From the IMG/VR virus record IMGVR_UViG_3300042475_004079, positions 1-29,629 of that record: DNA of 29,629 nucleotides; one strand, 5' to 3'. This document shows, piece after piece, positions 3,725-23,322 of this stretch. A model generated the notes under the pieces. That model was not told the origin of the DNA. It was given only the letters and a program-made list of their open reading frames with translations, and searched no databases. This DNA is from a virus. Numbering within the stretch: the first letter of the stretch is position 1; each line of letters begins with the position of its first letter. A program made the position numbers and the translations under genes.

Positions 3725-4855
3725 TCATTTAATATGTTTTGTTGTATCGATATCTTTATGGTCTTCCGCACCCAATGTGGTTGATGTTCTATAATTTGCA
3801 GTAGCCTGGTCGCCATAAATTTGAGTTCTATGCACTTCCATTCTTTTGCTTGTATTTTTATGCTCGCCAGTCACAACTACTCCAGTTGAACCATCTTTGT
3901 GTTCAACCTTTAGGTTTTTAAAATGCGACAAGTAATTGTGAACGTGAGATTCAACGTCTGTAACGTGATGATCGTGGCTTGCATCATTATTGCGCGTGGT
4001 TTTTACAATAATATGAGGTAAGTGTGTTTTTCCTGCTTCAACGTCACCACCTTCTGTATGACCAACTGCACCAATACTGCGTTTGATGAATGACTTCAAG
4101 TGTTCATCTTGGTGTATTGGATTCTTAGCATGGTAGCGTTTGCTTAAACCCTCAGCATATTTCTTGGCTACTGTTTGTGACATTGTACGATGACTTGCAT
4201 CGATCTTATCAATTAAATTAGTTTTGCCTGCATCTCTAATTTCTCTATAATCGCCTCTATTTTTAATTTTATGCGATGCCAATAGTTTCTTGTGTGCTTC
4301 TTTTTCTGGTAAGTCATTTAAATCTGCACCAGAGAATCTCTCAAGTGTTTTCTGACCATGATTTGCCCAGTTTGTTTTAGTTTTCTTACCGCTTTCTGGA
4401 GATGAGTATTTGATGCTGACAGCCATCTTAGATCTTTTCGTGTGATCAGTGGAACCCTTTCCACCCTTCGTCACAATTAAGTCAGCCTTACTCAATGAAT
4501 CTTTCACGCCTGTTTCTTTTTCATGGTCTGCAGGTTGTGATGTCCAAGCAACTCTATGGTGTGATTTAGCACCCACAAACTTATTAAATTTTGATGCAAC
4601 ATCAGATGCAGCGCTGTGCATACTCTTATACTCGGCATTATTCTTATAATTCTTGCCAAATACTTGTGTTGCATAATCGTGGTGGATATCTTCTGGTTTC
4701 TTTCCTTCCACGCGATAATCTTCTGGAAAATTTCCCTGATTTAAATGCTTACCAACAAGCAATTCGTGCAATGGACCTTTAAGAGCAGCTGTCTTAGCAC
4801 TTAATCTAGCAGCACCTTCGGATAAAAAAGTAGAGAATGTTAATATGTTATGCAT
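3725..4855 (-). CDS. Capsid-targeted protein with possible restriction-endonuclease-like fold
   Basis: This 376-aa basic, His-rich protein starts MHNILTFSTFLSEGAA, which matches the T4 capsid-targeting/gp21-cleavage pattern F..FL.E followed by small residues. An ATG at 4867 is also open, but the ATG at 4855 has GGAAAG 4 nt upstream and avoids overlap with the preceding gene, so I chose 4855. The segment SKADLIVTKGG...MAVSIKYSS (about residues 122-151) resembles the D...(x)xK core of PD-(D/E)XK nucleases. A preceding GPLHELLVG helix could supply a Glu. The usual acidic residue of E-x-K is Ser here, as in some HpaII-like enzymes, so activity is uncertain. If the reading is right, this is a DNA-acting protein packaged in the head. 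It could instead be a structural internal protein. Confidence 0.55.
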   Translation of the reverse strand: MHNILTFSTFLSEGAARLSAKTAALKGPLHELLVGKHLNQGNFPEDYRVEGKKPEDIHHDYATQVFGKNYKNNAEYKSMHSAASDVASKFNKFVGAKSHHRVAWTSQPADHEKETGVKDSLSKADLIVTKGGKGSTDHTKRSKMAVSIKYSSPESGKKTKTNWANHGQKTLERFSGADLNDLPEKEAHKKLLASHKIKNRGDYREIRDAGKTNLIDKIDASHRTMSQTVAKKYAEGLSKRYHAKNPIHQDEHLKSFIKRSIGAVGHTEGGDVEAGKTHLPHIIVKTTRNNDASHDHHVTDVESHVHNYLSHFKNLKVEHKDGSTGVVVTGEHKNTSKRMEVHRTQIYGDQATANYRTSTTLGAEDHKDIDTTKHIK

Positions 4856-4856
4856 G

Positions 4857-5594
4857 TTACTTTCCATATCTTAGATACATCATGGCACCAGTTATTTCAT
4901 CTTCGACAATGATTGGTGCTTCTTTGTTTTCGAGTGCATATTGACGAATTTCTTCGCCAAGTGGACCATTGACCATTGAACGCCAATGTTGACCTTTCTT
5001 TCTTCCAAGAGTTGCTTTATAATAGTCGCCGCTTGGAACTGTGAATACTCTTTTGCCACCAAACATCTTTGGTGGTGGGCGACGAAGAATTCCAGGAGAT
5101 AAAAGCATGTCGCGACCAGCAATACCCACATCGACAGCTGTGTCTGCTCCGCTAATTCCTGCAGTACCCATTGCATTTGCTGGTGCTTCTTCTTGAACTT
5201 TACTTGCAGCTGCAGCTTGTGCAGCTTGTAAAATTTTCTTTTCTGTATCGTCTAATTGTTGACTTTTAGAAAAGAGCTGATGTTTAGTTAGGTTTACATT
5301 CTTTGCTGCAGCCACTGCATATTTTGCACCACCAACACGGAAGTTGCCATCATCATCTCTCCAGTAAGTTTGAGTTGATGCTTCTTGATTTTGTCGCTGG
5401 TCAGCTTTTGCAGCTCTTTCATTTGCCGATTGTTTTCGTGCATATTTTTCGTTTTTGGTGGCAACATCTGCAGCCATTCTTGCACGCTGCATTTGTTTAT
5501 TTTCCGCAGCACTTTGAGAAATACCTTGCGCTCTGGTGCGCGCTGCTATTTGTTTTTCTTCGCGGGATTTTTTAGATTCGTTGATTTCTTTCAT
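4857..5594 (-). CDS. Conserved-looking phage protein of unknown function, basic coiled N-terminus
   Basis: This 245-aa protein is not recognised. Residues 1-75 are highly charged and helical (Lys/Arg/Glu/Gln/Ala), probably a coiled coil. The middle (about 100-140) is Ala/Gln-rich. The C-terminal 80 residues look globular (GGKRVFTVPSGDYYKATLG, then HWRSMVNGPLGEEI and a final EITGAMMYLRYGK). There is no signal peptide or membrane helix. The ATG abuts the preceding stop (TAAATG), pointing to coupled translation, and only a weak AAAGAA ribosome site is present. Its place among putative internal-head proteins suggests a virion role, by inference only. Confidence 0.6.
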   Translation of the reverse strand: MKEINESKKSREEKQIAARTRAQGISQSAAENKQMQRARMAADVATKNEKYARKQSANERAAKADQRQNQEASTQTYWRDDDGNFRVGGAKYAVAAAKNVNLTKHQLFSKSQQLDDTEKKILQAAQAAAASKVQEEAPANAMGTAGISGADTAVDVGIAGRDMLLSPGILRRPPPKMFGGKRVFTVPSGDYYKATLGRKKGQHWRSMVNGPLGEEIRQYALENKEAPIIVEDEITGAMMYLRYGK

Positions 5595-5995: not shown

Positions 5996-6481
5996 TCAGC
6001 CGTCATCGTCCATTCTTTTACGATACTTTTCGCCATAACTCATTTCTTCTTCATCATCTTCCATTTCTTCTTTTTCTTCACCCTCTTCTTCATCTTCACG
6101 AGGAACTTCTTCATCTGAATTCATAAGATTGTTTAATTCTGCTTCATCAACGACTTGAACATATCCTTCGACTTTAGCATTCTTGTGTGTATTGAATACA
6201 ACATAAAGATACAATCCGCTATCGCCTAATTGAAATGAGAGTTCAGAATCGAAGTTTAGGAAATGTCTTGTGGCACCTGGAGGAATGAGAATACCGTATC
6301 TCTCAAGTGTTCCGCGAAGTTGATTGTAAAACACGATTGAATTTTGATATGGTGCAGCTGTGAGGCGATCAAAATCGGCATTCATAGCATCCTTATTGTT
6401 TTCAATCATGCTTTTATCCACTTCTAGAAAGAGTGGATCCATTTGTGCTTGTTCATTGATGAATGTTTTAAACGTTTGCAT
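5996..6481 (-). CDS. Capsid-targeted acidic internal protein candidate
   Basis: This 161-aa protein has the N-terminus MQTFKTFINEQ, an almost residue-for-residue match in spacing to the T4 internal-protein tag MKTYQEFIAE, with Glu at position 10. Residues 14-115 look like one globular domain (DPLFLEVDKSMIENNKDA, YQNSIVFYNQLRGTLERYG, LYLYVVFNTHKN). Residues 120-160 are extremely acidic (EEEGEEKEEMEDDEEE) before a short charged end. Similar small proteins occur in cyanophage-type genomes as I remember them, without an assigned role. A strong AGGAG ribosome site precedes the ATG. A late-promoter-like AATAAATA lies about 47 nt upstream inside the preceding gene. Confidence 0.65.
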   Translation of the reverse strand: MQTFKTFINEQAQMDPLFLEVDKSMIENNKDAMNADFDRLTAAPYQNSIVFYNQLRGTLERYGILIPPGATRHFLNFDSELSFQLGDSGLYLYVVFNTHKNAKVEGYVQVVDEAELNNLMNSDEEVPREDEEEGEEKEEMEDDEEEMSYGEKYRKRMDDDG

Positions 6482-12827: not shown

Positions 12828-15115
12828 TTTTGCCCTGAATCACTAAAGTATCTTGGCCAACGGCAAGCCCAATAGGATGCGCTGGTTTTATCTTTATTGC
12901 CATAACAATTATGTCTTGCAACGAAAGACTTAACTCTTGATGGCTCATTGAATCTCTTCTTCATACCAGACTGACTGAAATTGACCTTGATTACATTACC
13001 CTTTTCGTTGCGAACATAAACAGCTCCACCGCCTCTGGAACGGAATGGTTTGCCAATTCCTTTACCTTTAGTTGGATCATTTTCTTCTTCCATTGGAACG
13101 CAGTTAGGGACCATCTTGTCGCCTTTCTTCTTCATTCCTTTTTGTGTGTACCCTTTCCAACATTCTTCCATATCTTCTTCATATGGATAATCTAGAAGAA
13201 CTTGTTCGCCTTCGAATTCAGCCACTTCTCCGATATCGCTTTCGAGAAGATCTTGCTCATACTCATCCTTTGGAGTATACAAACCTTCAGCATATAATCT
13301 CTTTGCTTCCAAGATCATTGCAAAGAACATTTCAGATCCTGGACGATAAACGTTTTCGATGAGTGATAGATTATTCTGATGATGATAATCTACTGCTTCA
13401 GAAAGACCAAGGACTGGAAATCCACTAACAGAATCACCAGCATATTGATTGCCTGTTACATTTTTAATCTTACGAGTCTTGAGTGATGGAGTGAAATCGA
13501 CGCCGTCCTCTACTCCATCATCTTCTAGTTCTTCTTCGTCCTCGATTTCTTCTTCGCTTTCATCTTCTTCGACTTGCGGTTCTTCTTTGAGGTTTTTTCT
13601 GAGTTGTTTAAATGAAACTCCATCATTTCCATTAACTTCAGATCCAGTGGATTCATTTCCTTCACTGGTTTCTGAGGGTTCGGATTCCGAAGTAGTTTGA
13701 GGAACGCTGTTGCCATATGCTTCAGGTGGGAAAACATCTTCAATCTCCTGGTCTTGTCCTGGTGTCATTGCAATGGCATGTTGACGATATTCATCTGTTC
13801 CAACCAATTGCATCTCGTCTAGTTGTTCATCTTCGAAGATATTGGCGATACCAAAATCCTTTCCAGGATATCTTTCTTTTCTTTGTTGTGGTGTCAATGT
13901 ACGGCGTGCAGCTGCAGCTCTTGCTTCATTTTCACCTGGATCTGCATAATATTTCATCTTAGACATGAAGTCGCCGCTACCTTGCTTTTTAAACTGTTCT
14001 GGACTTGCCCCACCATCTCTTCCTTGCATGTACTGTACAGCGTGCTGCAATTCATGAACCATAGCATCTTTAGCACCACTTTCTGTTGGGCTCATAACTT
14101 GAATGCCACCAGACTTTCTACCACCCCATCGACTAAATTTTCCTCTTTGGGAAGTTGATAGTGCTTGTCCAGGAGTTAAACTTCTAGCAACTGTTGGTAG
14201 TCCAGAGAGTCCTGGGAATTTTTTAAATAATTGGTCATGCTTCACAACATTAGCGGCTGAATTCCAATTTTGTTGCTGACGTTGTTTACCAACACCCAAA
14301 TCACTTAATGGACCTTGTTGCTTGTAACCAGGAAGCTCCATCTTATCATCGCTAATTGGTTCCTGTAACCAACGACCTGTTTGTGGATGCTGGAACGCAC
14401 CAGTCTTTTTCCAAATATCCTCTTTCTTTGCACCAGTGCTTTGCATTTGACGAGCAGATTTAACTTGTGTCTCATCAGCACCAGTAAAAATTAATCTTTC
14501 AAATAATTGATTAATATCTACTGCTTCTGCAAGTCTTTCATTTGGTCCAGGTATGTATGGTTTTTTAGGTGGCTTATCGGGCTTTGGCTCAGATTTTGGC
14601 TCAGATTTTTGTTTTGGCACATATTGTATTTCACGTTTAGTGCTGAAAGGTAATTTTACCTCTACTTGTTCGTATTCGTTTCCAGCGTCATCAACAATTT
14701 TGCCGTCCTTATTATATAGTTGTTTAATAGTTTTGATTTCATCGTCTTTTTTTTCGGGTTCTGGCCACTCATCGTATTTTGGTTTTGGAATACTTTCACT
14801 TATGTTTGGTGTTACATCTTTTATTTTTACTGATGGGCGTTTCTCAAGATAACTCTGCATTGTTTCTTTCTTGAGTTCATTCAACTGTTCTGTACCTTCG
14901 CGCAGATCTTTATCTGCTGTATGATAGGTCTTACCTTTACGAAGGAAGGAATTTACACGAGCATGACCCCATTGTTGTGGAGTTGTTCCTGGACGATGTC
15001 CAGAATTCCAAGCAGCAACACCACGCTTATAAACTTTCTTGAGTGTGCCCAATGACACTCCAAACTTTCTGGCTTTTCCAGCAAGAGATAAATCTGGTTT
15101 TTTCTTATCACTCAT
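12818..15115 (-). CDS. Multidomain ('polyvalent') late protein with embedded HExxH metalloprotease
   Basis: This 765-aa protein has an N-terminal module (about 15-60; RKFGVSLGTLKKVYKRG, then AWNSGHRPGTTPQQWG) of a small DUF kind frequent in large phages and viruses. Residues 335-420 form a zincin-like domain: VHELQHAVQY supplies H354, E355 and H358, and YADPGENEARAAA supplies a third Glu (395 or 397). This arrangement, followed by RRTLTPQQR, matches metallopeptidase domains found in phage polyvalent proteins. An acidic linker (509-540) and a LSEAVDYHHQNN/LYAEGLYTP region follow. Then come CWKGYTQKGMKKKGDKMVPNC (652-672) and a C-terminal domain (688-765; SQSGMKKRFNEP, ARHNC, TSASYWACRWPRYF). 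Sites such as LSE/A (573) could be cut by a prohead protease. Likely a virion or internal protein; the protease activity is inferred. Confidence 0.7.
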   Translation of the reverse strand: MSDKKKPDLSLAGKARKFGVSLGTLKKVYKRGVAAWNSGHRPGTTPQQWGHARVNSFLRKGKTYHTADKDLREGTEQLNELKKETMQSYLEKRPSVKIKDVTPNISESIPKPKYDEWPEPEKKDDEIKTIKQLYNKDGKIVDDAGNEYEQVEVKLPFSTKREIQYVPKQKSEPKSEPKPDKPPKKPYIPGPNERLAEAVDINQLFERLIFTGADETQVKSARQMQSTGAKKEDIWKKTGAFQHPQTGRWLQEPISDDKMELPGYKQQGPLSDLGVGKQRQQQNWNSAANVVKHDQLFKKFPGLSGLPTVARSLTPGQALSTSQRGKFSRWGGRKSGGIQVMSPTESGAKDAMVHELQHAVQYMQGRDGGASPEQFKKQGSGDFMSKMKYYADPGENEARAAAARRTLTPQQRKERYPGKDFGIANIFEDEQLDEMQLVGTDEYRQHAIAMTPGQDQEIEDVFPPEAYGNSVPQTTSESEPSETSEGNESTGSEVNGNDGVSFKQLRKNLKEEPQVEEDESEEEIEDEEELEDDGVEDGVDFTPSLKTRKIKNVTGNQYAGDSVSGFPVLGLSEAVDYHHQNNLSLIENVYRPGSEMFFAMILEAKRLYAEGLYTPKDEYEQDLLESDIGEVAEFEGEQVLLDYPYEEDMEECWKGYTQKGMKKKGDKMVPNCVPMEEENDPTKGKGIGKPFRSRGGGAVYVRNEKGNVIKVNFSQSGMKKRFNEPSRVKSFVARHNCYGNKDKTSASYWACRWPRYFSDSGQKWW

Positions 15116-16715
15116 TGTTGCTCTCGTTATAATTTCCAGTTAGATACCAGCGTTGTGAGGATGGATGCTTGACGGCTTCCCACAACACATTGTTTTCATA
15201 ATAGACTGCTTTATTTTCTGATACATTTGTTAGTCTATTTGTAGGAATAGACAATTGATTAGTAATTGATTTTGTTGTATCAATTAGATCTTTAAGATTG
15301 TAATTTGTTGCTTCTTTAAGTGACTGCATTCTCTTTAGAATACTACGTTTTTGCATCACAGCCGTAATGTTACCTGTACGAGCAACACGATTTTTTCTTG
15401 GATCTACGACTGGTGGAATTGGCTTGTTGAAGTCGATTCCTTCATCCATCGCTTTCCGAATTGCCAATGTGTGCTTGCTTGGTTTGGTTTCAGCTGTAGC
15501 ATCACCTGGAGCTGGTTCATAGGCGCGTGAATCACGATCTGAATACTTTTCTTTTTCTTTCCAGTGTTTTGCGCGAGCCTTTGCAGTTGATGAACTTAGT
15601 CCAGCAACATACTTCTTTGGTAGACCAGATTCTTTATCCTTTGCAACACGATTCTTAAATCTTTCTGTGATTACAGTGAATGATCTGAGTTCAGGTGTTT
15701 CAACAGGATTGATACCATGACCTTGAATTCTACTCTCAAGTTTCACGGTCTGATCTTCGAAGATTAGTTTCTCAAATGCGCTTGCAGCATTGAAGTTCAT
15801 TGAATTGTTAAAAACAAATACATCGTCTAGAGACTCAACGAGCTTTTCTGTGTTTAATAACTTTTGAATTCTCTTTGACTCGTGCAATGGATTTTCGCGT
15901 TGTTCGTTGCGTTGACGGCTGACCTTATTTGTAACCGAAACATAGATTGTATCGAAATTATAATCTTCGTGTAGTGACTTAATTTCTTCGATCTTTCCTT
16001 CATCAATTGGTCCATTGATGACAAGATTTTTCTTTTCTTCGAACAATTGATTTGCAGTTCCATTTAGAACCTGATCAATCTGTACTTCCATCAAGTCATA
16101 TTTGGCAAAAGTATTCTTGAGAACAAAATCCTTTCCACTTCCTGGACCACCAATAAGAAAGAATGCTGTTGGACATACTTCTTCTTTTAGTTCTTTAAAG
16201 ATATCTTCGGCATGTGGGTGTAATGCTTTTGGAAGAAACTTCTTGAGTTCACGAGGATTCTTTGCATTGCGTGCTGCTGTTCCAGAAATGCCAGCAAGTC
16301 CTTTTGCCCCTTGCTTTCTTTCGCCGCCAACTTGCTTGAATTCGATATCATCGAATTTATAGAATCCGTGTTTACCTTCTTTATTGTTATAATCACGGAT
16401 GCGATCTGCAATTGAAGAACGATCAGATCCACCGTAAATAACTAACTTTCCTCTTTTACCAGAGGAATAAACTTGAGATGCAGCATGTAATGGAGTGACT
16501 GTTGTGTCTACGTTTACATCTGATCCAACTGCAGTTTTAATGTACTCGACTTTCTTTTCTGCTGAGATTGGACGGCGAGCAGATTGCGTTGTAAAGACAT
16601 TAACGCTGGTATGTTCACCAGACTTCATCTGATTTACATTTTCGTCATGTCCTTTAGTGAATGGTGAGAATCCACCAACCAACATTGCATGAGATTTTAC
16701 TTCTTTCTCACTCAT
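15108..16715 (-). CDS. Nucleotidyltransferase / P-loop kinase fusion with phage-specific C-terminal domain
   Basis: This is a 535-aa fusion. Residues 8-170 look like a cytidylyltransferase-fold nucleotidyltransferase: MLVGGFSPFTKGH carries the [HT]xGH motif (T20-H23), IYGGSD is central and ISGTAAR (143-149) stands where ISSTxxR is expected. Residues 184-305 are a P-loop kinase-like domain with Walker A GGPGSGKD (189-196). Residues 368-415 contain YVAGLSSSTAKARAKHW and RAYEPAPGDATAETKPSKHT, a short module shared by several large-virus and phage proteins as I recall. The rest is Arg/Lys/Asn-rich. The NTase-kinase order resembles NadR (NMN adenylyltransferase plus ribosylnicotinamide kinase), so NAD salvage is one option; substrate is unproven. 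It overlaps the next gene by 8 nt. Confidence 0.7.
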   Translation of the reverse strand: MSEKEVKSHAMLVGGFSPFTKGHDENVNQMKSGEHTSVNVFTTQSARRPISAEKKVEYIKTAVGSDVNVDTTVTPLHAASQVYSSGKRGKLVIYGGSDRSSIADRIRDYNNKEGKHGFYKFDDIEFKQVGGERKQGAKGLAGISGTAARNAKNPRELKKFLPKALHPHAEDIFKELKEEVCPTAFFLIGGPGSGKDFVLKNTFAKYDLMEVQIDQVLNGTANQLFEEKKNLVINGPIDEGKIEEIKSLHEDYNFDTIYVSVTNKVSRQRNEQRENPLHESKRIQKLLNTEKLVESLDDVFVFNNSMNFNAASAFEKLIFEDQTVKLESRIQGHGINPVETPELRSFTVITERFKNRVAKDKESGLPKKYVAGLSSSTAKARAKHWKEKEKYSDRDSRAYEPAPGDATAETKPSKHTLAIRKAMDEGIDFNKPIPPVVDPRKNRVARTGNITAVMQKRSILKRMQSLKEATNYNLKDLIDTTKSITNQLSIPTNRLTNVSENKAVYYENNVLWEAVKHPSSQRWYLTGNYNESNNE

Positions 16716-16719
16716 AATA

Positions 16720-17514
16720 TTATTTGTCCTCTTTTTCTAGAGATTCATTCATAATGATTTGTTCATAAATGTTTTTTCTGAAATCTTTAAATCGCACACC
16801 TTCAGCCATAGCAGGAAGGTTTTTATTTAATTTATTTCTCATCAGAGCCAATTTTCTTTTTAGTTTGTCTCTGGAAGAATGAAGAGCAAATTTTCCTCTA
16901 TACTGTCCCAATGTTCCAATGTCGTCTGTTTTAGATTCTACAGGTGAACCACCGCCTAATACACTACCAACGACACCAGTTGCAGCAGCTGCTACGATAG
17001 GTGCTGGAGCAGAAACTGTTGATGATGCACCCTTGCCGATACCACGCAATGCATGCCACGTATTTCCTAATGCCTCTGGTCCACGTGCAGCAGCTCTTGT
17101 ATAGAGATGCTTTGCGAGTTTTTCTTGTTCGTCTGAATTGAAAACAACATCTCTATAACTATCACCATAGAGACTTTTTGCAGTATCAATCAATGTGCTT
17201 TTTTCAAACTGATAACGACCAACGCCTGTGCTACCTGGATCACCTTTGAATCCCTGACGACGCAATTCTTCTTGACGGCTTGGAATGTTTAGTCCGTAAG
17301 CACGAGACTTATTTCTCATTTCGGATTCTTGCCAGTCGTTCAACTCACCAATCGTCATTTGAGAGATTGGTTTAGGTGCAACAATACCTGCTAGATTTCT
17401 TTTTGATCCATCTTTGTTAAGTCTGTCATATGCAATGGTATCATAGTCGTAACTTTCTTTGCCAGCGACTTTGTCCTTGACATCTTCCCATTTTGGTGGT
17501 GTATATGCTGTCAT
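16720..17514 (-). CDS. Lysozyme-like virion protein with hydrophobic segment
   Basis: This 264-aa protein has residues 15-155 like phage lysozyme/transglycosylase folds of tail or virion enzymes: VAGKESYDYD with candidate catalytic E20, ISQMTIGELNDWQ, GSTGVGRYQFEKSTLIDTAK, and NTWHALRGIGKG. An Ala/Val/Gly-rich hydrophobic stretch follows (about 168-188). The tail has DIGTLGQYRGKFALHS (198-211), which recurs in the 431-aa protein, then a Lys/Arg-rich helix and the end YEQIIMNESLE. MAE/G (238) resembles a prohead protease site. A second peptidoglycan-cleaving protein, apart from the endolysin and inside the late block, suggests a virion enzyme for entry rather than lysis. No lipobox or signal peptide is present. 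Confidence 0.65.
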   Translation of the reverse strand: MTAYTPPKWEDVKDKVAGKESYDYDTIAYDRLNKDGSKRNLAGIVAPKPISQMTIGELNDWQESEMRNKSRAYGLNIPSRQEELRRQGFKGDPGSTGVGRYQFEKSTLIDTAKSLYGDSYRDVVFNSDEQEKLAKHLYTRAAARGPEALGNTWHALRGIGKGASSTVSAPAPIVAAAATGVVGSVLGGGSPVESKTDDIGTLGQYRGKFALHSSRDKLKRKLALMRNKLNKNLPAMAEGVRFKDFRKNIYEQIIMNESLEKEDK

Positions 17515-17530: not shown

Positions 17531-18877
17531 TTATTGTTGAACTTCAACTTCTTGCTCTGGTTGAGCAGCTTGTTGTTTCTGGAATCTTCCGCGATTGAAA
17601 TTAAGTCTGCTGAAATTTGGACGGTCAATAAACTTAACTGGAACGTCATTTCCTGTTTCTGGATTTGACATTACAACAACATGACCTTCCTGTGAATTTA
17701 CATTCTCTCCAGTGTCAGGATCGCTAATAGATCCTTGCATTAGGTTAGAGTTATTAACAGCATTTGCATCAAGTGATGGGAGCAATGCATTCTTTGCATC
17801 TGTAAGAGCTTGATGAATTCTTAAAGTTTGTCTCCACTTTACAGAGTTCATGTTAAGATCATTTAAAATCTCATCGCGCTTTTGAGTGATGGTTGGTGCT
17901 TTCTTTGCGTTCTTTGGATTTTCAATTTGTCTATTGAATTTTTGAGTAATATGGTCAACAAGACCTTCGTATGTAGAAGGAGCACCTGTCTTAACTGTGT
18001 CATTCACATAAGTTGATAGATGTTCAGCATGAGGAATAGCATGATTGAAATCATGTTTCTCAGACATAATCTTAACTTGCTTCACTGCTCGGTCATAAGC
18101 AGCCTGAGCATCTGATCCATAGTTTTCTGGATTTGGTGCTGTTGAACGTGGATCAATGACATGTACGTCTGAGTGTTTTCCAAATGATCTCAAAGGAACA
18201 TTAAATTGTCTCTTTGGGAATGAAAGCATCATCTGTCCAGTCTTAGAATGCGGCTTCCATGATGCGCTTGGGTATGCAGTATGAACCACGATTCCGAATT
18301 TAGATTGAGCAATCTTTTGCCCAAGTTTAGAATCAGCTGGAGCAGAATAATTAATAAGTTGTGGATTTAGAGAATAGCGATATCCATTCTCATCGTCACC
18401 CTCCTGCTTGACCATATCAGGAGTGTGCATGAAATCTCCCTGATAGATTCCCTTCATTGGAGTAACCTTTGGGAGATGCTCTAGAGCAGCGAGCATTTTA
18501 GATGCAAGTTCTGGGCGGTCGCCAAAGTGTGTCTGCACATCCTCTGGAGAAGTGATTAACTTCTGAGTTGTTTTATTAAATGCAGATTTTGTGGCAACGA
18601 AGAATTGACCAGGAGCATATCCGCTATTCTTAGCATTCTTGTTTGGTAGGCGACCGAAAACCATCGCTGGAGCACCGTCGTGTTTGACAGAAACTTTAGC
18701 AGCTGATGGTTCTCCTTTTAGATACTTGTGAATGTTATCTAAGAAATTTAGAGATAGATCTACACCTTCTTTTCCGTGTTTAATCGGAAGATCTTCAACG
18801 TGTTCAAGGTGTCCGCCATTAATGTCTTCGGTTTCGAATTTTGCGGCTTCAGTGAGATATTGGCTAAATCGTAGCAT
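17531..18877 (-). CDS. Capsid-targeted protein with nucleic-acid-ligase-like motifs
   Basis: This 448-aa protein begins MLRFSQYLTEAAK, closely matching the T4 capsid-targeting tag with Glu at residue 10 followed by Ala. The body shows an order of motifs like covalent nucleotidyltransferases (DNA/RNA ligases, capping enzymes). VSVKHDGAPAMVFG has K65-x-D-G (motif I). GIYQGDFMHT (143-152) may be motif III, FGIVVHTAY (194-202) motif IIIa, EGHVVV (397-402) motif IV and VKFIDR (414-419) motif V. The wide spacing between IIIa and IV and the lack of a known homologue that I can verify keep this at motif level. A tagged ligase would be packaged and injected with the genome, which could serve end sealing or RNA repair. 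CTAAATA lies 33 nt upstream in an otherwise unused gap. The C-terminus is Gln/Glu-rich. Confidence 0.65.
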   Translation of the reverse strand: MLRFSQYLTEAAKFETEDINGGHLEHVEDLPIKHGKEGVDLSLNFLDNIHKYLKGEPSAAKVSVKHDGAPAMVFGRLPNKNAKNSGYAPGQFFVATKSAFNKTTQKLITSPEDVQTHFGDRPELASKMLAALEHLPKVTPMKGIYQGDFMHTPDMVKQEGDDENGYRYSLNPQLINYSAPADSKLGQKIAQSKFGIVVHTAYPSASWKPHSKTGQMMLSFPKRQFNVPLRSFGKHSDVHVIDPRSTAPNPENYGSDAQAAYDRAVKQVKIMSEKHDFNHAIPHAEHLSTYVNDTVKTGAPSTYEGLVDHITQKFNRQIENPKNAKKAPTITQKRDEILNDLNMNSVKWRQTLRIHQALTDAKNALLPSLDANAVNNSNLMQGSISDPDTGENVNSQEGHVVVMSNPETGNDVPVKFIDRPNFSRLNFNRGRFQKQQAAQPEQEVEVQQ

Positions 18878-18909: not shown

Positions 18910-18916
18910 TATTTAG
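18910..18916 (-). promoter_or_regulatory. Candidate late promoter CTAAATA upstream of the 448-aa gene
   Basis: CTAAATA on the minus strand is 33 nt before the ATG at 18877, in the 35-nt gap that separates the sugar operon from the late block. It is the same heptamer and near-same distance as at 9597-9603. This is a plausible switch point from middle to late expression. Confidence 0.55.
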
Positions 18917-19818
18917 TTATTTTTACCAGTTAGTATTCCGTAAATAATGTCGTCGACGGTTTCTTGAATCGTGTATTGCGGTCTGTACCCCAGGGATTCA
19001 AGTTTGGTATTATCCATGAAGAAAGAACGAGAGGATTGGACTTTCTTGTGAAACTCTTTCTGTTCTATAGTGCGGAGTTCAGAAGCCGAATCCATTGAAT
19101 CTCGAGCGTATCGAATAATGTCTCGGAAGATTATTGGTCTCCCATTTCCGATGTTGTAGATTGAGTTAATTTCTCCTCGTTGAACAACGAGATCGATTGC
19201 TCGAGCGCAATCGCGAACATCAATATAATCACGATAAAAATACCCACTATCATAGAGATCCACTGGTCGATTGGACGCGATCTCCGCCAGTAAGTATTGG
19301 AGAGCGTTCTTTTTCGCAGATACCTTTTTATCTTGTTTACCCAATACATTTGCGAGCCTTAAAATTCGATATTGAAGTCCAAACGTCTCGCAGTAGGACA
19401 TCAATAACTGCTCGGCGCATCTCTTCGTGATGGAATAAAAACCTTTTGGCTCACATGGATCGGTTTCGGGAATTCCTCGCGGTCCATTGCCAATTTGTGA
19501 TGGATGACCACCACTAAATCCAGAGTCTTGTCCATAGACAAACCAGGAACTCATGAAGTTGAACACTCCTTGTTCACCAGTTCGTTTTATATAGTCTCGA
19601 TAGTTATCGAGGACTTTCATCAAGACAACGAGATTAGTATTAATATCCAAGAGAGAATCGACGTGTACATTATAGTTGTCAACGGTACTAATAAAGTAAA
19701 CGCAATTTGCACTCCGTACTTCGTAATTATCCCTGTAATTTTTGATCCAGCCTTTGGCAACGTTACAGTATTCACTTCCGACAAAACCATATCCCCCAAA
19801 AACGTTTACGATTGCCAT
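18913..19818 (-). CDS. NAD-dependent epimerase/dehydratase-family nucleotide-sugar reductase or epimerase
   Basis: This 301-aa extended short-chain dehydrogenase starts MAIVNVFGGYGFVGSEY with the GxxGxxG nucleotide-binding turn. It has FMSSWFVYG (Ser side of the triad) and YSITK (catalytic Tyr and Lys), then a DYIDVRDCARAI substrate-domain segment and IYNIGNGRPI. It is last in an operon after rmlB, rmlA and a 3-dehydratase, so it likely reduces or epimerises C4 of the resulting sugar. The exact stereochemistry cannot be read. An upstream in-frame start at 19875 would add 19 residues before the Rossmann fold, so I chose the ATG at 19818, which overlaps the upstream stop by 13 nt. Confidence 0.8.
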   Translation of the reverse strand: MAIVNVFGGYGFVGSEYCNVAKGWIKNYRDNYEVRSANCVYFISTVDNYNVHVDSLLDINTNLVVLMKVLDNYRDYIKRTGEQGVFNFMSSWFVYGQDSGFSGGHPSQIGNGPRGIPETDPCEPKGFYSITKRCAEQLLMSYCETFGLQYRILRLANVLGKQDKKVSAKKNALQYLLAEIASNRPVDLYDSGYFYRDYIDVRDCARAIDLVVQRGEINSIYNIGNGRPIIFRDIIRYARDSMDSASELRTIEQKEFHKKVQSSRSFFMDNTKLESLGYRPQYTIQETVDDIIYGILTGKNN

Positions 19819-21101
19819 TTTGCAAACACGCTTTCGTAATAGGCAAATACATCTTCGCCATAGTGTGGAGGGCAACCAACAAAGAACACGTTACTCAATG
19901 CCTTGTTCGCATTTGGATACTTCGAAGCATCGTCAAGATGTTTGTAACCAGGATGCAACAGAATATTTCCAGCAAAGTAGTTGCGAGTCTGAATACGATT
20001 TGCTTCGCAGAAGGCTTGGAGTTTTTCCTTGAGTTCAGGTGTATCAGTGATCAACGGCACACCGAACCAAGAAGGATCTGCCTTATCCAGAGCAGAGGCA
20101 ACGCGAACACCAGGAACGGAACGATAGAAGATGCTCTTGATGCGCTCGAAATTCAAACGACGCTTCACATCAATCTCATCTATTTTCTTCAACTGCTCAA
20201 TACCAATCGCACCTTGAAGATCAAGTGGCTTGAGATTGAATCCCATGTTTGAGAAGAGATACTTGTGATCAATTATTCCATTATATCCTTCAAGCCATTT
20301 ATCAAAGCGATTACCACATGTTCCACAAGCCAATAGATTAGCAGCACCGACGCAACGGCAATCACGACCCCACCAGCTAATGCTGCGAGCAGTGTTGATG
20401 AGTTGTTCGTCGTCTGAGCAAACCATCCCGCCTTCGCCTGTCGAAATGTGGTGAGCAGGATAGAAAGATGTTGTCCACGCATAGTAATAGTCCGTAAGAA
20501 GTTTACCATCCCAACGAGTGCCAAGTGAATCGCAGTTATCACCAATTAAAAGAAGATCATGTTTATCACAGATTTCTTTAATGCGATCCATATCAGGAGG
20601 ATTGCCGAGCACTGGTGAAACGAAAATAGCGGCTGTACGTTCTGTAATCTTTTCTTCAAGTTTATCAAGATCGAAATTAAGAGTGTCCATTTCAATGTCT
20701 ACAAACACTGGTTTTAGATTATTCTGAACGAGTGGTGCAATAGTCGTCGGGAATCCGACAGGTGATACAAGAACCTCAACGCCATCTTCCAAGTTCAGAT
20801 GCTTCTTGAGTGCTGCAACCATTGTCAAATTGGCAGAGGAACCAGAGTTGACCATGTGAGCATGCTTCACATTGAATTTGCGACAGAATGCCCATTGGAA
20901 CTTCGCAACATTCTCGCCAGAGACGAGCCACTTACCTGTTAGAAATGCAGTGACACCAGCAATGACTTCTTTCTCATCCCAATATGGACCAGAATAGAAT
21001 ACGGTATCTTTCTCAGGATTGAACTCTTTGCAATTGTATGCATACTTTGGTGTACCAACAGCGGCAACCAAATCTTCAATCATTTGCTTCACATCACTCA
21101 T
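19806..21101 (-). CDS. rfbH: NDP-4-keto-6-deoxyhexose 3-dehydratase, RfbH/E1 type (PLP and Fe-S)
   Basis: This 431-aa DegT/DnrJ/EryC1-fold enzyme should remove the C3 hydroxyl of a 4-keto-6-deoxy nucleotide sugar. The PLP fold is shown by NSGSSANLTM, GDNCDSLG (D188) and SFYPAHHISTGEGGM. Aminotransferases of this fold carry a Lys where this enzyme has His (H217/H218), the hallmark of 3-dehydratases. Cysteines at 190, 248 and 250, followed by 259 and 262, reproduce the C-x57-C-x1-C spacing of the [2Fe-2S] site of Yersinia E1 almost exactly; the last ligand is shifted by one residue. Its ATG overlaps the rmlA stop (ATGA). The usual NAD(P)H-flavin reductase partner (E3) is not in this window. The symbol is by similarity. 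Confidence 0.85.
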   Translation of the reverse strand: MSDVKQMIEDLVAAVGTPKYAYNCKEFNPEKDTVFYSGPYWDEKEVIAGVTAFLTGKWLVSGENVAKFQWAFCRKFNVKHAHMVNSGSSANLTMVAALKKHLNLEDGVEVLVSPVGFPTTIAPLVQNNLKPVFVDIEMDTLNFDLDKLEEKITERTAAIFVSPVLGNPPDMDRIKEICDKHDLLLIGDNCDSLGTRWDGKLLTDYYYAWTTSFYPAHHISTGEGGMVCSDDEQLINTARSISWWGRDCRCVGAANLLACGTCGNRFDKWLEGYNGIIDHKYLFSNMGFNLKPLDLQGAIGIEQLKKIDEIDVKRRLNFERIKSIFYRSVPGVRVASALDKADPSWFGVPLITDTPELKEKLQAFCEANRIQTRNYFAGNILLHPGYKHLDDASKYPNANKALSNVFFVGCPPHYGEDVFAYYESVFAKWQS

Positions 21102-21973
21102 ACTTTCATCCTCAAGATTTGTCCAAGATATTTACCATAATCTGATTTACTATACTTCTCAGCGGCACTACGAACATCATGCTCTGTAATCCATGCATTC
21201 TTGTATGCGATTTCTTCAGGGCATGCAATCATCATACCTGTTCTCTTTTGCACTGAACCAACAAATACAGATGCTTCTGAGAGAGACTCAAATGTACCTG
21301 TGTCAATCCAAGCAATACCACGATTCAAATACTCAATCTTGCAATCATTGTTTTGCATATAAAGATTGTTGATGTCAGTAATCTCCAATTCTCCTCTTGC
21401 AGAAGGTGAGATCCTCCAGGCATATTCTACTACATTATTGTCATAAAAGTAAAGCCCAGTGACAGCATAATTACTTGGAGCAAATTTAGGCTTTTCGACA
21501 ATTCGAATTGGGTTTCCATCATTATCTAATTCTACCACTCCAAACCGTTCAGGGTCCGCGACATGGTAGGCGAAAACTGTGCAACCAACATGATTGTTTT
21601 TTGCGGCATTGAAACGATTGATCAATTCATTACCATAGAAAATATTGTCACCGAGAATCAGAGTGACTTCATCATCATCAATCCATTTTGCTGCAATGCG
21701 GAAACATTCAGCAATTCCTCTTGGTTGCAACTGAGTTTCATAAACAATATTCAATCCCCACTGAGATCCATCACCAATAAGTTTCTCAAATGGTGCGCGA
21801 TCAGCTGGCGATGTAATAATCATAATATCACGAATGCCAGCAAGCATCAATGTAGAAATTGGATAATAGACCAATGGCTTGTCATAAACAGGCAATAACT
21901 GTTTTGAAATAACCTTTGTGCATGGATAGAGGCGTGTACCTAATCCACCTGATAAAATAATCCCTTTACGCAT
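21098..21973 (-). CDS. rmlA: Glucose-1-phosphate thymidylyltransferase
   Basis: This 291-aa enzyme joins glucose-1-phosphate to dTTP, making dTDP-glucose. Near-perfect family motifs are present: KGIILSGGLGTRLYP (nucleotide loop, near the N-terminus), KQLLPVYDKPLVYYP, LGDNIFYG (catalytic Asp), EKPKFAPSNYAVTGLYFYDN and RGELEITDINNLY. IAWIDTGTFESL and CPEEIAYKNAWI follow. Length matches RmlA (about 290). An earlier ATG (22033) would add 20 unrelated residues over the rmlB gene. The ATG at 21973 has GGAG 7 nt upstream, overlaps the rmlB stop by 8 nt and fits the family start. It is second in the sugar operon. Confidence 0.95.
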   Translation of the reverse strand: MRKGIILSGGLGTRLYPCTKVISKQLLPVYDKPLVYYPISTLMLAGIRDIMIITSPADRAPFEKLIGDGSQWGLNIVYETQLQPRGIAECFRIAAKWIDDDEVTLILGDNIFYGNELINRFNAAKNNHVGCTVFAYHVADPERFGVVELDNDGNPIRIVEKPKFAPSNYAVTGLYFYDNNVVEYAWRISPSARGELEITDINNLYMQNNDCKIEYLNRGIAWIDTGTFESLSEASVFVGSVQKRTGMMIACPEEIAYKNAWITEHDVRSAAEKYSKSDYGKYLGQILRMKV

Positions 21974-22916
21974 TATACCACTCCAAAGTTTTCTCCAGTC
22001 CTTGGACGATCTTGGTCTTTGCGGACCAACCAAGTTCCTTGAAGATTTTATCCGAATTCATAGAATATCTAAAATCATGACCCTTACGATCATTTACAAA
22101 ATTAATCCAGTTTTGATACATGTGAACTGGTTTACCCATTAAGTCAAGAATCAATGTTACCATTTCTAAGTTAGTGATCTCATGACCACCGCCAATGTTG
22201 TAACGTTCACCAGATTTAAAATTCTGACCAATTGCGAGTAATGCCTCACAATGATCTTCAACAAACAACCAATCACGAATGTTTGTTCCAGTGCCGTAGA
22301 CTGGAATTGGTGTATTGTTTTTAATATTGCGAATGATCGTTGGAATAAATTTCTCAGTATGCTGGCGAGGACCATAGTTGTTTGAGCAATTGGTAACAAC
22401 TGCATCAATCTTATGTGTGTTTACATAAGCACGAACGAGATGATCGCTGGCTGCTTTGGTTGCAGAGTATGGATTGCGTGGATCGTACGGAGTTGTTTCA
22501 GTGAACGAAGGATCTTCTGAATTTAAACTTCCATAGACTTCATCAGTTGAAACGTGAACAAGTTTACCACCATACTTGCGAATACACTTTAGAATGTTAT
22601 GAGTGCCATTAACATTAGTGCTGAGGAAATCATCGTCCCCAGTAATAGAATTGTCAACATGAGACTCAGCAGCAAAATGAAACGTAATGTCTGGTTCATA
22701 GTCATGATACATGTGGTCTAAGAATTCAAGATTCCGAATGTCGACTTTTTTGATATTAAGTCGCCAGTCGTCATAGAAACCATTTAGATTGCTGCCATTT
22801 GCAGCGTATGAGAAGTTGTCGAGAATGACAACCTCATCAGAAGGATATTTTTGTAGGTGAGAGATTACAAAATTAGAACCAATAAATCCCAAACCACCAG
22901 TCACAAATGTAGTCAT
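21966..22916 (-). CDS. rmlB: dTDP-glucose 4,6-dehydratase
   Basis: This 316-aa extended SDR converts dTDP-glucose to dTDP-4-keto-6-deoxyglucose. It has TGGLGFIGSNF (NAD-binding), HFAAESHVDNSI, VSTDEVYG (catalytic Asp-Glu pair), YSATKAASDHL (catalytic Tyr and Lys), NCSNNYGPRQHTEKFIPTII and YGTGTNIRDWLFVEDHC, all signatures of RmlB. It is first in the four-gene sugar operon; the ATG at 22916 follows GAGG. The dTDP specificity is supported by the adjacent rmlA, though the sequence is also near CDP-glucose dehydratases. Confidence 0.93.
   Translation of the reverse strand: MTTFVTGGLGFIGSNFVISHLQKYPSDEVVILDNFSYAANGSNLNGFYDDWRLNIKKVDIRNLEFLDHMYHDYEPDITFHFAAESHVDNSITGDDDFLSTNVNGTHNILKCIRKYGGKLVHVSTDEVYGSLNSEDPSFTETTPYDPRNPYSATKAASDHLVRAYVNTHKIDAVVTNCSNNYGPRQHTEKFIPTIIRNIKNNTPIPVYGTGTNIRDWLFVEDHCEALLAIGQNFKSGERYNIGGGHEITNLEMVTLILDLMGKPVHMYQNWINFVNDRKGHDFRYSMNSDKIFKELGWSAKTKIVQGLEKTLEWYNA
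21981..21984 (-). promoter_or_regulatory. Ribosome binding site for rmlA
   Basis: GGAG on the minus strand inside the end of rmlB, 7 nt before the ATG at 21973, decides the rmlA start. Confidence 0.6.
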
Positions 22917-22926
22917 AAAACCTCAA

Positions 22927-23322
22927 TTACAATTCAACTTCCTCATAAATTGCAGGATTTGATTTACCATAATTTCTCATGATGACACCAGCCTTGCTGT
23001 TTGCTTCGTTTTCAAACTCGCTGCCTGTCTCACCTGCATAACTATGTAGTACACCATCTTCGTTCTGTTTGTGGTGGACTAGTTCATGTCCCAATGTGCG
23101 TAGAACGTCAGCAAGATGACGTCCTGCGATGTTTAGATGAATAACTCTTTCACTTGGAGAGTAACCACCGAAACTCGTATTCTCTCTCGCTGTATCGCGA
23201 TTGTCAATAATTACGAGTTTTGGGAGTTCCGCAATACCTAAATTGTCTTTGCAGTAACCCATGAAGTCTTGAATGCTGCTATGGGTTTCTTGTTCCTTCA
23301 GGTATTCTCTGAATTTTTTCAT
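22927..23322 (-). CDS. Capsid-targeted HExxH metallopeptidase-like protein
   Basis: This 131-aa protein has the N-terminus MKKFREYLKEQETHS, which fits the T4 capsid-targeting pattern with Glu at residue 10. Residues 72-118 are a zincin core: LGHELVHHKQNEDG gives H79, E80 and H83, and GSEFENEANSKAGVIMRNYG gives a third Glu (104 or 106). This pairing is familiar from small putative peptidases in marine T4-like phages. It overlaps the upstream 216-aa zincin gene by 44 nt. A TATAAATA octamer lies about 124 nt upstream inside that gene, so late expression separate from the replication genes is possible. Substrate unknown. If packaged it could act in the head or after injection. Confidence 0.72.
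   Translation of the reverse strand: MKKFREYLKEQETHSSIQDFMGYCKDNLGIAELPKLVIIDNRDTARENTSFGGYSPSERVIHLNIAGRHLADVLRTLGHELVHHKQNEDGVLHSYAGETGSEFENEANSKAGVIMRNYGKSNPAIYEEVEL

What the first reader, a model, noticed from the sequence alone, without database searches (positions are those of the whole stretch)
17531..18877. Ligase-like enzyme with a capsid tag
The 448-aa protein has KHDG (motif I-like), GDFMHT, FGIVVHTAY, EGHVVV and VKFIDR in the order of covalent nucleotidyltransferases, behind a capsid-targeting start. A ligase delivered with the genome would be unusual; T4 packages an ADP-ribosyltransferase but not its ligases, as far as I know.
Basis: inference. Interest (0 to 1): 0.8.

Follow-up and report, generated by a model that had tools for sequence, protein, structure and literature searches.

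The report
Ligase-like phage enzyme with head-packaging leader
A protein family of unknown function, carried by hundreds of marine T4-like phages, looks like a distant cousin of DNA and RNA ligases, and in this phage's lineage it begins with the short address tag that T4-type phages use to pack proteins inside their heads, so it may be injected with the genome.

Summary
The 448-aa protein (17531-18877, minus strand) is real. It belongs to Pfam DUF6267 (E 4.5e-67), function unknown, found in about 470 phage records, mostly T4-like cyanophages. K65, D67, G68, E397, G398, K415 and R419 are invariant in 73 homologues. Confident AlphaFold models find mostly covalent nucleotidyltransferases (DNA/RNA ligases, capping enzymes) as nearest solved folds, but each match is weak (E about 0.05-0.5) and profile comparison with T4 Rnl1, Rnl2 and gp30 fails. 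So it is ligase-like in fold and motifs; ligase activity is unproven.

The leader MLRFSQYLTE matches T4's capsid-targeting sequence at every mapped residue (4, 7, 8, 10). Such leaders are enriched on DUF6267 (52/106) and on its neighbouring HxGH nucleotidyltransferase (28/61) against 46/666 other neighbours. In published virion proteomes the HxGH proteins found in particles bear this leader; leaderless DUF6267 proteins were not listed.

New here: the family usually sits beside, or is fused to, that HxGH enzyme. Thirteen of fifteen DUF6267 phages examined lack any canonical DNA ligase, a gap noted for cyanophages in 2010. Two have both, so simple replacement is not proven.

The parts
17531..18877 (-). 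DUF6267 protein, 448 aa: ligase-like covalent nucleotidyltransferase candidate
   Evidence: ORF; PF19782 E 4.5e-67, 227.5 bits against a cut-off of 27; AlphaFold2 pLDDT 89.5, pTM 0.87
18848..18877 (-). N-terminal leader MLRFSQYLTE, T4 capsid-targeting-sequence type; predicted cleavage after Glu10 (L-T-E)
   Evidence: T4 leader MKTYQEFIAE found twice in the T4 record; positions 4 and 7 (targeting), 8 and 10 (processing) as in PMC9026906; enrichment
18674..18685 (-). Motif I, K65-H-D67-G68; K65 is the predicted nucleotidyl-lysine
   Evidence: K65, D67, G68 invariant; strand 61-64 leads into it in the model
18428..18451 (-). Motif III-like strand GIYQGDFM (143-150); Gln146 and Asp148 invariant; Asp where ligases usually have Glu
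18272..18295 (-). Motif IIIa-like strand GIVVHTAY (195-202); Gly195, His199, Tyr202 invariant
17756..18115 (-). All-helical insertion (residues 255-374) between motifs IIIa and IV; much shorter in S-SM1-type members
   Evidence: model secondary structure; short form
17672..17689 (-). Motif IV, E397-G398-HVVV
   Evidence: E397, G398, V400 invariant
17621..17641 (-). Motif V, PVK415FIDR419
   Evidence: K415 and R419 invariant
15108..16715 (-). Neighbour: HxGH nucleotidylyltransferase domain followed by a P-loop kinase-like domain (535 aa); the conserved partner gene of DUF6267
   Evidence: phrog_3041 cytidyltransferase 5.7e-20; weak zeta-toxin/AAA_33 matches; synteny
16720..17514 (-). Intervening gene, 264 aa, matches a phage virion-structural family
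   Evidence: phrog_6126 3.3e-10
22927..23322 (-). Another leader-bearing protein (MKKFREYLKE): metalloprotease-like
   Evidence: phrog_87 metallo-protease 2.4e-5; leader
5996..6481 (-). Another leader-bearing protein (MQTFKTFINE), function unknown

Best explanation
A divergent member of the covalent (lysyl-nucleotidyl) transferase fold, the fold of DNA and RNA ligases, which in this phage lineage is packed into the head by a T4-type targeting leader and injected with the genome. Inferred mechanism: during prohead assembly the leader binds the scaffold core; the gp21-type protease cuts after Glu10; the enzyme enters the cell with the DNA. There K65 takes a nucleotidyl group (probably AMP) from NTP or NAD+ and passes it to a nucleic-acid end. 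It probably works with the neighbouring HxGH nucleotidylyltransferase and kinase, to repair or join ends before phage genes are expressed. Shown here: motif conservation, fold class of the models, leader and its enrichment, partner linkage and fusions, presence of the protease in long relatives. Inferred: catalysis, nucleotide, substrate, and packaging of this particular protein.
For: Catalytic-type residues invariant in 73 long forms and in a mixed set of 59. Two confident models; for the short form PDB ranks 1-18 are all RNA or DNA ligases, and for the full protein ranks 2-8 are DNA ligases or ligase complexes. Leader matches the mapped T4 determinants and is enriched on DUF6267 and on HxGH partners (Fisher p 1e-24 and 1e-14). 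gp21-type protease in 3 of 3 long relative contigs and in Melnitz. HxGH neighbour close downstream in 82 of 98 loci with enough flank, and fused in 2 more. HxGH proteins found in virions of S-SM1, S-SZBM1 and S-CREM2 all bear the leader.
Against: Single fold matches are not significant (E 0.05 or worse, TM about 0.2). Profile comparison with T4 Rnl1, Rnl2 and gp30 is negative, and an unrelated control scored higher. Motif III has Asp, not Glu. Half the family lacks the leader. Leaderless members were not listed in the S-SZBM1 and S-CREM2 virion tables. The pair pattern 'one leader per pair' could not be separated from ancestry. Many loci are close relatives, so the Fisher p values are overstated.
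Confidence: 0.5

Rival explanations
1. It is the missing replicative DNA ligase of T4-like cyanophages and their relatives, working in the replisome, with the leader secondary.
For: PF01068 and PF01653 absent from 13 of 15 DUF6267-bearing phages or long contigs tested; the absence of g30 in cyanomyoviruses was noted in 2010, with unrecognised distant homologues considered but thought less probable (PMC2984593). The gene often lies between uvsX/gp41 and gp61.
Against: DLP6 and Vibrio phage EniLVp02 carry both. The gene is outside the replication block in DLP6 and S-CREM2. A packaging leader is not needed for a replisome enzyme. No OB domain follows motif V. Host ligase could serve.
Confidence: 0.17
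2. A nucleotidyltransferase for a small molecule, protein or RNA cap rather than a ligase, acting with the HxGH (NMNAT-like) partner in NAD+ or nucleotide chemistry on the host.
For: The most constant neighbour or fusion partner is an HxGH nucleotidylyltransferase, called NMNAT-like in virion papers; the window's partner joins HxGH and P-loop kinase domains, the layout of NadR.
Against: Nearest folds are mostly nucleic-acid ligases; no PDB or NadR-family sequence match for the partner.
Confidence: 0.2
3. A structural or scaffold head protein that kept a dead nucleotidyltransferase fold.
For: Leader; no activity known for the family.
Against: Every catalytic-type residue tested is invariant across long and short forms, and members without a leader keep them too.
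Confidence: 0.08

Closest known systems
PF19782 / DUF6267 (phrog_455; T4-GC 71 of cyanophages)
   Same: Sequence membership is clear.
   Different: Family has no assigned function; the cyanophage members examined lack the leader seen here.
Covalent nucleotidyltransferase superfamily: ATP/NAD+ DNA ligases, RNA ligases (Rnl1, Rnl2, Rnl3, Trl1), mRNA capping enzymes
   Same: Order and strand context of motifs I, III, IIIa, IV, V; nearest solved folds.
   Different: Asp in motif III, long helical insertion between IIIa and IV, no OB domain, no detectable profile similarity to T4 ligases.
T4 internal head proteins (IPI-III, Alt) with a capsid-targeting sequence
   Same: Leader of the MKTYQEFIAE type, L/I-X-E cleavage site.
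   Different: Cargo is a ligase-like enzyme; T4's known cargo includes IPI (anti-restriction) and Alt (ADP-ribosyltransferase).
HxGH 'cytidylyltransferase/NMNAT-like' proteins of cyanophage virions (T4-GC 190)
   Same: Neighbour or fusion partner; same leader; found in virions by mass spectrometry.
   Different: Different fold and chemistry; a partner, not a homologue.

Membership tests
PF19782 DUF6267 | HMM score above the curated cut-off over the full model | tested here: met
   227.5 bits against 27, model positions 3-374 of 376
Covalent nucleotidyltransferase superfamily | Motif I KxDG with conserved lysine | tested here: met
   K65, D67, G68 invariant in 73 and 59 sequences
Covalent nucleotidyltransferase superfamily | Motif IV EGxV and motif V lysine downstream | tested here: met
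   E397, G398, V400, K415 invariant; order and spacing
Covalent nucleotidyltransferase superfamily | Motif III acidic residue (usually Glu) | tested here: inconclusive
   Invariant Asp148 instead of Glu
Covalent nucleotidyltransferase superfamily | Nearest solved folds are of this superfamily | tested here: met
   PDB ranks 1-18 for the short form, ranks 2-8 for the full protein
Covalent nucleotidyltransferase superfamily | Individually significant structure match (not a defining feature, but the usual proof) | tested here: inconclusive
   Best ligase matches E 0.05-0.07, TM about 0.2; none reaches E 0.001
Covalent nucleotidyltransferase superfamily | Nucleotidyl-lysine intermediate | not testable with these tools
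   Needs biochemistry
T4 Rnl1, Rnl2 or gp30 ligase families | Sequence-profile similarity | tested here: not met
   hhalign probability 4.4%, 0.2%, 0.7%; an RmlA-type control scored higher
ATP-dependent DNA ligases | OB-fold domain after motif V | tested here: not met
   Only helix 419-438 and a low-confidence tail follow
T4 capsid-targeted internal proteins | Leader with aromatic residues 4 and 7, L/I at 8, Glu at 10 | tested here: met
   MLRFSQYLTE against MKTYQEFIAE
T4 capsid-targeted internal proteins | gp21-type prohead protease in the same phage | tested here: inconclusive
   Window is a 29.6-kb fragment; present in 3 of 3 long relative contigs and Melnitz
T4 capsid-targeted internal proteins | Protein found in the virion, leader cleaved | not testable with these tools
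   No proteome of a leader-bearing DUF6267 phage found; leaderless orthologues not listed in S-SZBM1 and S-CREM2

The most novel reading that the evidence does not exclude
DUF6267 and its HxGH partner form a two-part nucleotidyltransferase apparatus that is packaged in the head, one leader per pair being enough to bring in both, and injected to join or modify nucleic-acid ends at the moment of entry. In cyanophages it also supplies the ligase that these T4-like phages have seemed to lack.
Probability: 0.2. Interest if true: 0.88.

Novelty: new variant of a known kind. Interest (0 to 1): 0.64.

Why it matters
The family is carried by about 470 sequenced phages, mostly of abundant ocean bacteria, and has no assigned function; no paper in the held library names it. 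If it is an injected ligase-like enzyme, it adds a new class of cargo to the T4-type head and makes a question raised in 2010, how cyanophages manage without a DNA ligase, directly testable. The leader rule also gives a simple way to predict other injected proteins in these phages.

Tried and rejected
Sequence search of the PDB with the protein and its profile: nothing real. Profile comparison with T4 Rnl1, Rnl2 and gp30: negative; an RmlA-type control family scored higher, so uncalibrated pairwise HH scores were not used as support. 'One leader per pair' (HxGH only 36, DUF6267 only 31, both 4, neither 11, fused with one leader 2) looked like evidence of a complex, but on a tree there are too few independent changes to test it. 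Strict complementarity with a canonical DNA ligase: rejected, because DLP6 and EniLVp02 have both. A T4-type late promoter (TATAAATA) upstream: matches no more frequent than in shuffles and no exact match at this gene. Defence-system library: no match for this protein. Bacterial genome hits are nearly all metagenome bins, most simply phage contigs (not followed). A genome-wide leader scan of Melnitz with a strict pattern found only the gene just upstream of DUF6267; the Melnitz DUF6267 itself has the leader motif three residues further in from its annotated start.

Full report
What is there. The ORF at 17531-18877 lies on the minus strand and encodes 448 aa. It matches Pfam DUF6267 over almost its whole length and phrog_455, both of unknown function. 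tblastn finds 466-471 phage records with a relative, mostly Synechococcus and Prochlorococcus T4-like phages, with pelagiphage HTVC008M, Methylophilales phage Melnitz, and Vibrio, Pseudoalteromonas and Stenotrophomonas phages. The window is a 29.6-kb IMG/VR virus record with no close DNA match among named phages.

Conservation. In 73 homologues, 27-81% identical to the query, the invariant residues include K65, D67, G68, Q146, D148, G195, H199, Y202, E397, G398, V400, K415 and R419. A second set of 59 that adds the shorter S-SM1-type proteins keeps the equivalents of nearly all of them.

Structure. AlphaFold2 with the 73-sequence alignment gives pLDDT 89.5 and pTM 0.87. K65 follows a strand, E397 precedes a strand, K415 lies at the end of the next strand, and a helical block (255-374) is inserted between motifs IIIa and IV. 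Foldseek against the PDB gives DNA ligases or ligase complexes at ranks 2-8. The short-form model (pLDDT 87.7) gives RNA or DNA ligases at every one of ranks 1-18, among them tRNA ligase, the P. pacificus and Naegleria RNA ligases, LigA and human Lig1. Each match is weak (E 0.05 or worse). The consistency of the list, not any single score, is the evidence. Against predicted viral proteins, the only strong matches are other family members or proteins named as cytidyltransferase-like fusions.

Sequence profiles do not support kinship with T4's own ligases: hhalign probabilities were 4.4% (Rnl1), 0.2% (Rnl2) and 0.7% (gp30), and an unrelated RmlA-type family scored 36-73%. The short Rnl1 match falls in the motif IV region but is not significant. 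There is no OB domain after motif V. I therefore call it ligase-like in fold and motifs, not a member of a named ligase family.

The leader. T4's internal proteins are targeted by their first ten residues; residues 4 and 7 matter for targeting, 8 and 10 for processing, and gp21 cuts after L/I-X-E (PMC9026906). The T4 record encodes MKTYQEFIAE twice. Here the leader is MLRFSQYLTE: aromatic at 4 and 7, Leu at 8, Glu at 10. A strict pattern is found on 52 of 106 DUF6267 proteins, 28 of 61 HxGH nucleotidyltransferases and 46 of 666 other neighbours, against 3 of 5071 internal methionines. Many of these loci are related, so the Fisher p values are too small, but the leader trait changes at least nine times on the DUF6267 tree and looks alike on unrelated proteins: metalloproteases, P-loop kinases and HAD phosphatases. 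hhalign aligns the leader alone between DUF6267 and three other neighbour families. A gp21-type protease is present in all three long relative contigs and in Melnitz.

Published proteomics. The HxGH 'cytidylyltransferase' was found in virions of S-SM1 (PMC3037559), S-SZBM1 (PMC9146016) and S-CREM2 (PMC10665884). All three begin with the leader: MKKFSAFLNE, MRFRQFIIE, MKNFSSFLTE. In S-SZBM1 and S-CREM2 the DUF6267 protein (SSZBM1_141, gp87) is absent from the published lists, and both start without a leader. So the leader tracks virion presence where it can be checked. The S-SM1 table itself was not readable. The authors of the S-CREM2 and S-SCSM1 papers caution that such proteins could be contaminants that survive CsCl purification.

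Neighbourhood. DUF6267 is followed closely by an HxGH nucleotidylyltransferase in 82 of 98 loci with enough flank, and 2 more are fused to one (fused proteins, including L053, L054, L059 and L077). S-PM2 carries a 591-aa form annotated as cytidyltransferase-like. In the window the partner (15108-16715) adds a P-loop kinase-like domain. In many phages the pair lies between gp43/uvsX/gp41 and gp61/nrdA, but in DLP6 and S-CREM2 it does not.

The ligase gap. A 2010 review notes that cyanomyoviruses lack g30 DNA ligase and considers unrecognised distant homologues less likely than use of the host ligase (PMC2984593). I find no ATP-type (PF01068) or NAD+-type (PF01653) DNA ligase in 13 of 15 DUF6267-bearing phages or long contigs (DUF6267 present in all 15). 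DLP6 and the vibriophage EniLVp02 carry both. DUF6267 as the missing ligase is thus possible but not required.

Mechanism. Most likely: scaffold-targeted packaging, cleavage after Glu10, injection, then K65-dependent nucleotidyl transfer to a nucleic-acid end, with the HxGH/kinase partner. The first steps rest on the T4 precedent plus the leader. Catalysis rests on invariant residues and fold class. The substrate is a guess. My rough odds: nucleotidyltransferase fold 0.85; packaged in this lineage 0.75; catalytically active 0.75; a true ligase 0.45.

Noticed in passing
15108-16715 (-) and loci L002-L156: Leader distribution on DUF6267/HxGH pairs is close to 'one per pair' (HxGH only 36, DUF6267 only 31, both 4, neither 11, fused with one leader 2). 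Confounded by ancestry; too few independent changes to test.
   Followed up: yes
P-HM1, S-PM2, HTVC008M, Melnitz, S-SZBM1, S-SM1, S-CREM2, C48C1, DSL-LC02, P-RSM6 and three long contigs: None of these 13 T4-like genomes or contigs has a PF01068 or PF01653 DNA ligase, while all carry DUF6267.
   Followed up: partly
L066, L067, L071, L074, L081, L090, L091, L094, L108: A second leader type on DUF6267, MKLFEIxxQTPxxLLTES, still ending in an L-x-E site; possibly a variant targeting sequence.
   Followed up: no
L098:4075-4758, L105:3395-3976, L053:1661-2287, L069:9054-9629: P-loop kinases (AAA_33/adenylate-kinase type) and HAD-phosphatase-like proteins near DUF6267 also carry the head-targeting leader; together with a ligase-like protein they resemble an end-repair set.
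   Followed up: partly
22927-23322 (-): Metalloprotease-like protein with a textbook leader (MKKFREYLKE), conserved in relatives; a candidate injected protease.
   Followed up: no
3725-4867 (-): 380-aa protein with ILTFSTFLSE near its start; 36% identical to L061:3416-4549, which follows DUF6267 in its contig and has a clean leader. Contains KADLIV...SIK, faintly like a PD-(D/E)XK nuclease; no Pfam support and the motif is not in the L061 relative.
   Followed up: partly
18913-22916 (-): Nucleotide-sugar cassette (RmlA-like, dehydratase/epimerases, DegT aminotransferase) inserted between the replication genes and DUF6267.
   Followed up: no
S-PM2d138 (L112:7983-9758) and short forms L119-L156: DUF6267 proteins vary from about 295 to 736 aa: the helical insertion shrinks in S-SM1-type members and an HxGH domain is fused in others.
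   Followed up: yes
L254, Nonlabens xiamenensis contig of 188 kb: DUF6267 in an isolate genome assembly; probably a co-sequenced phage.
   Followed up: no
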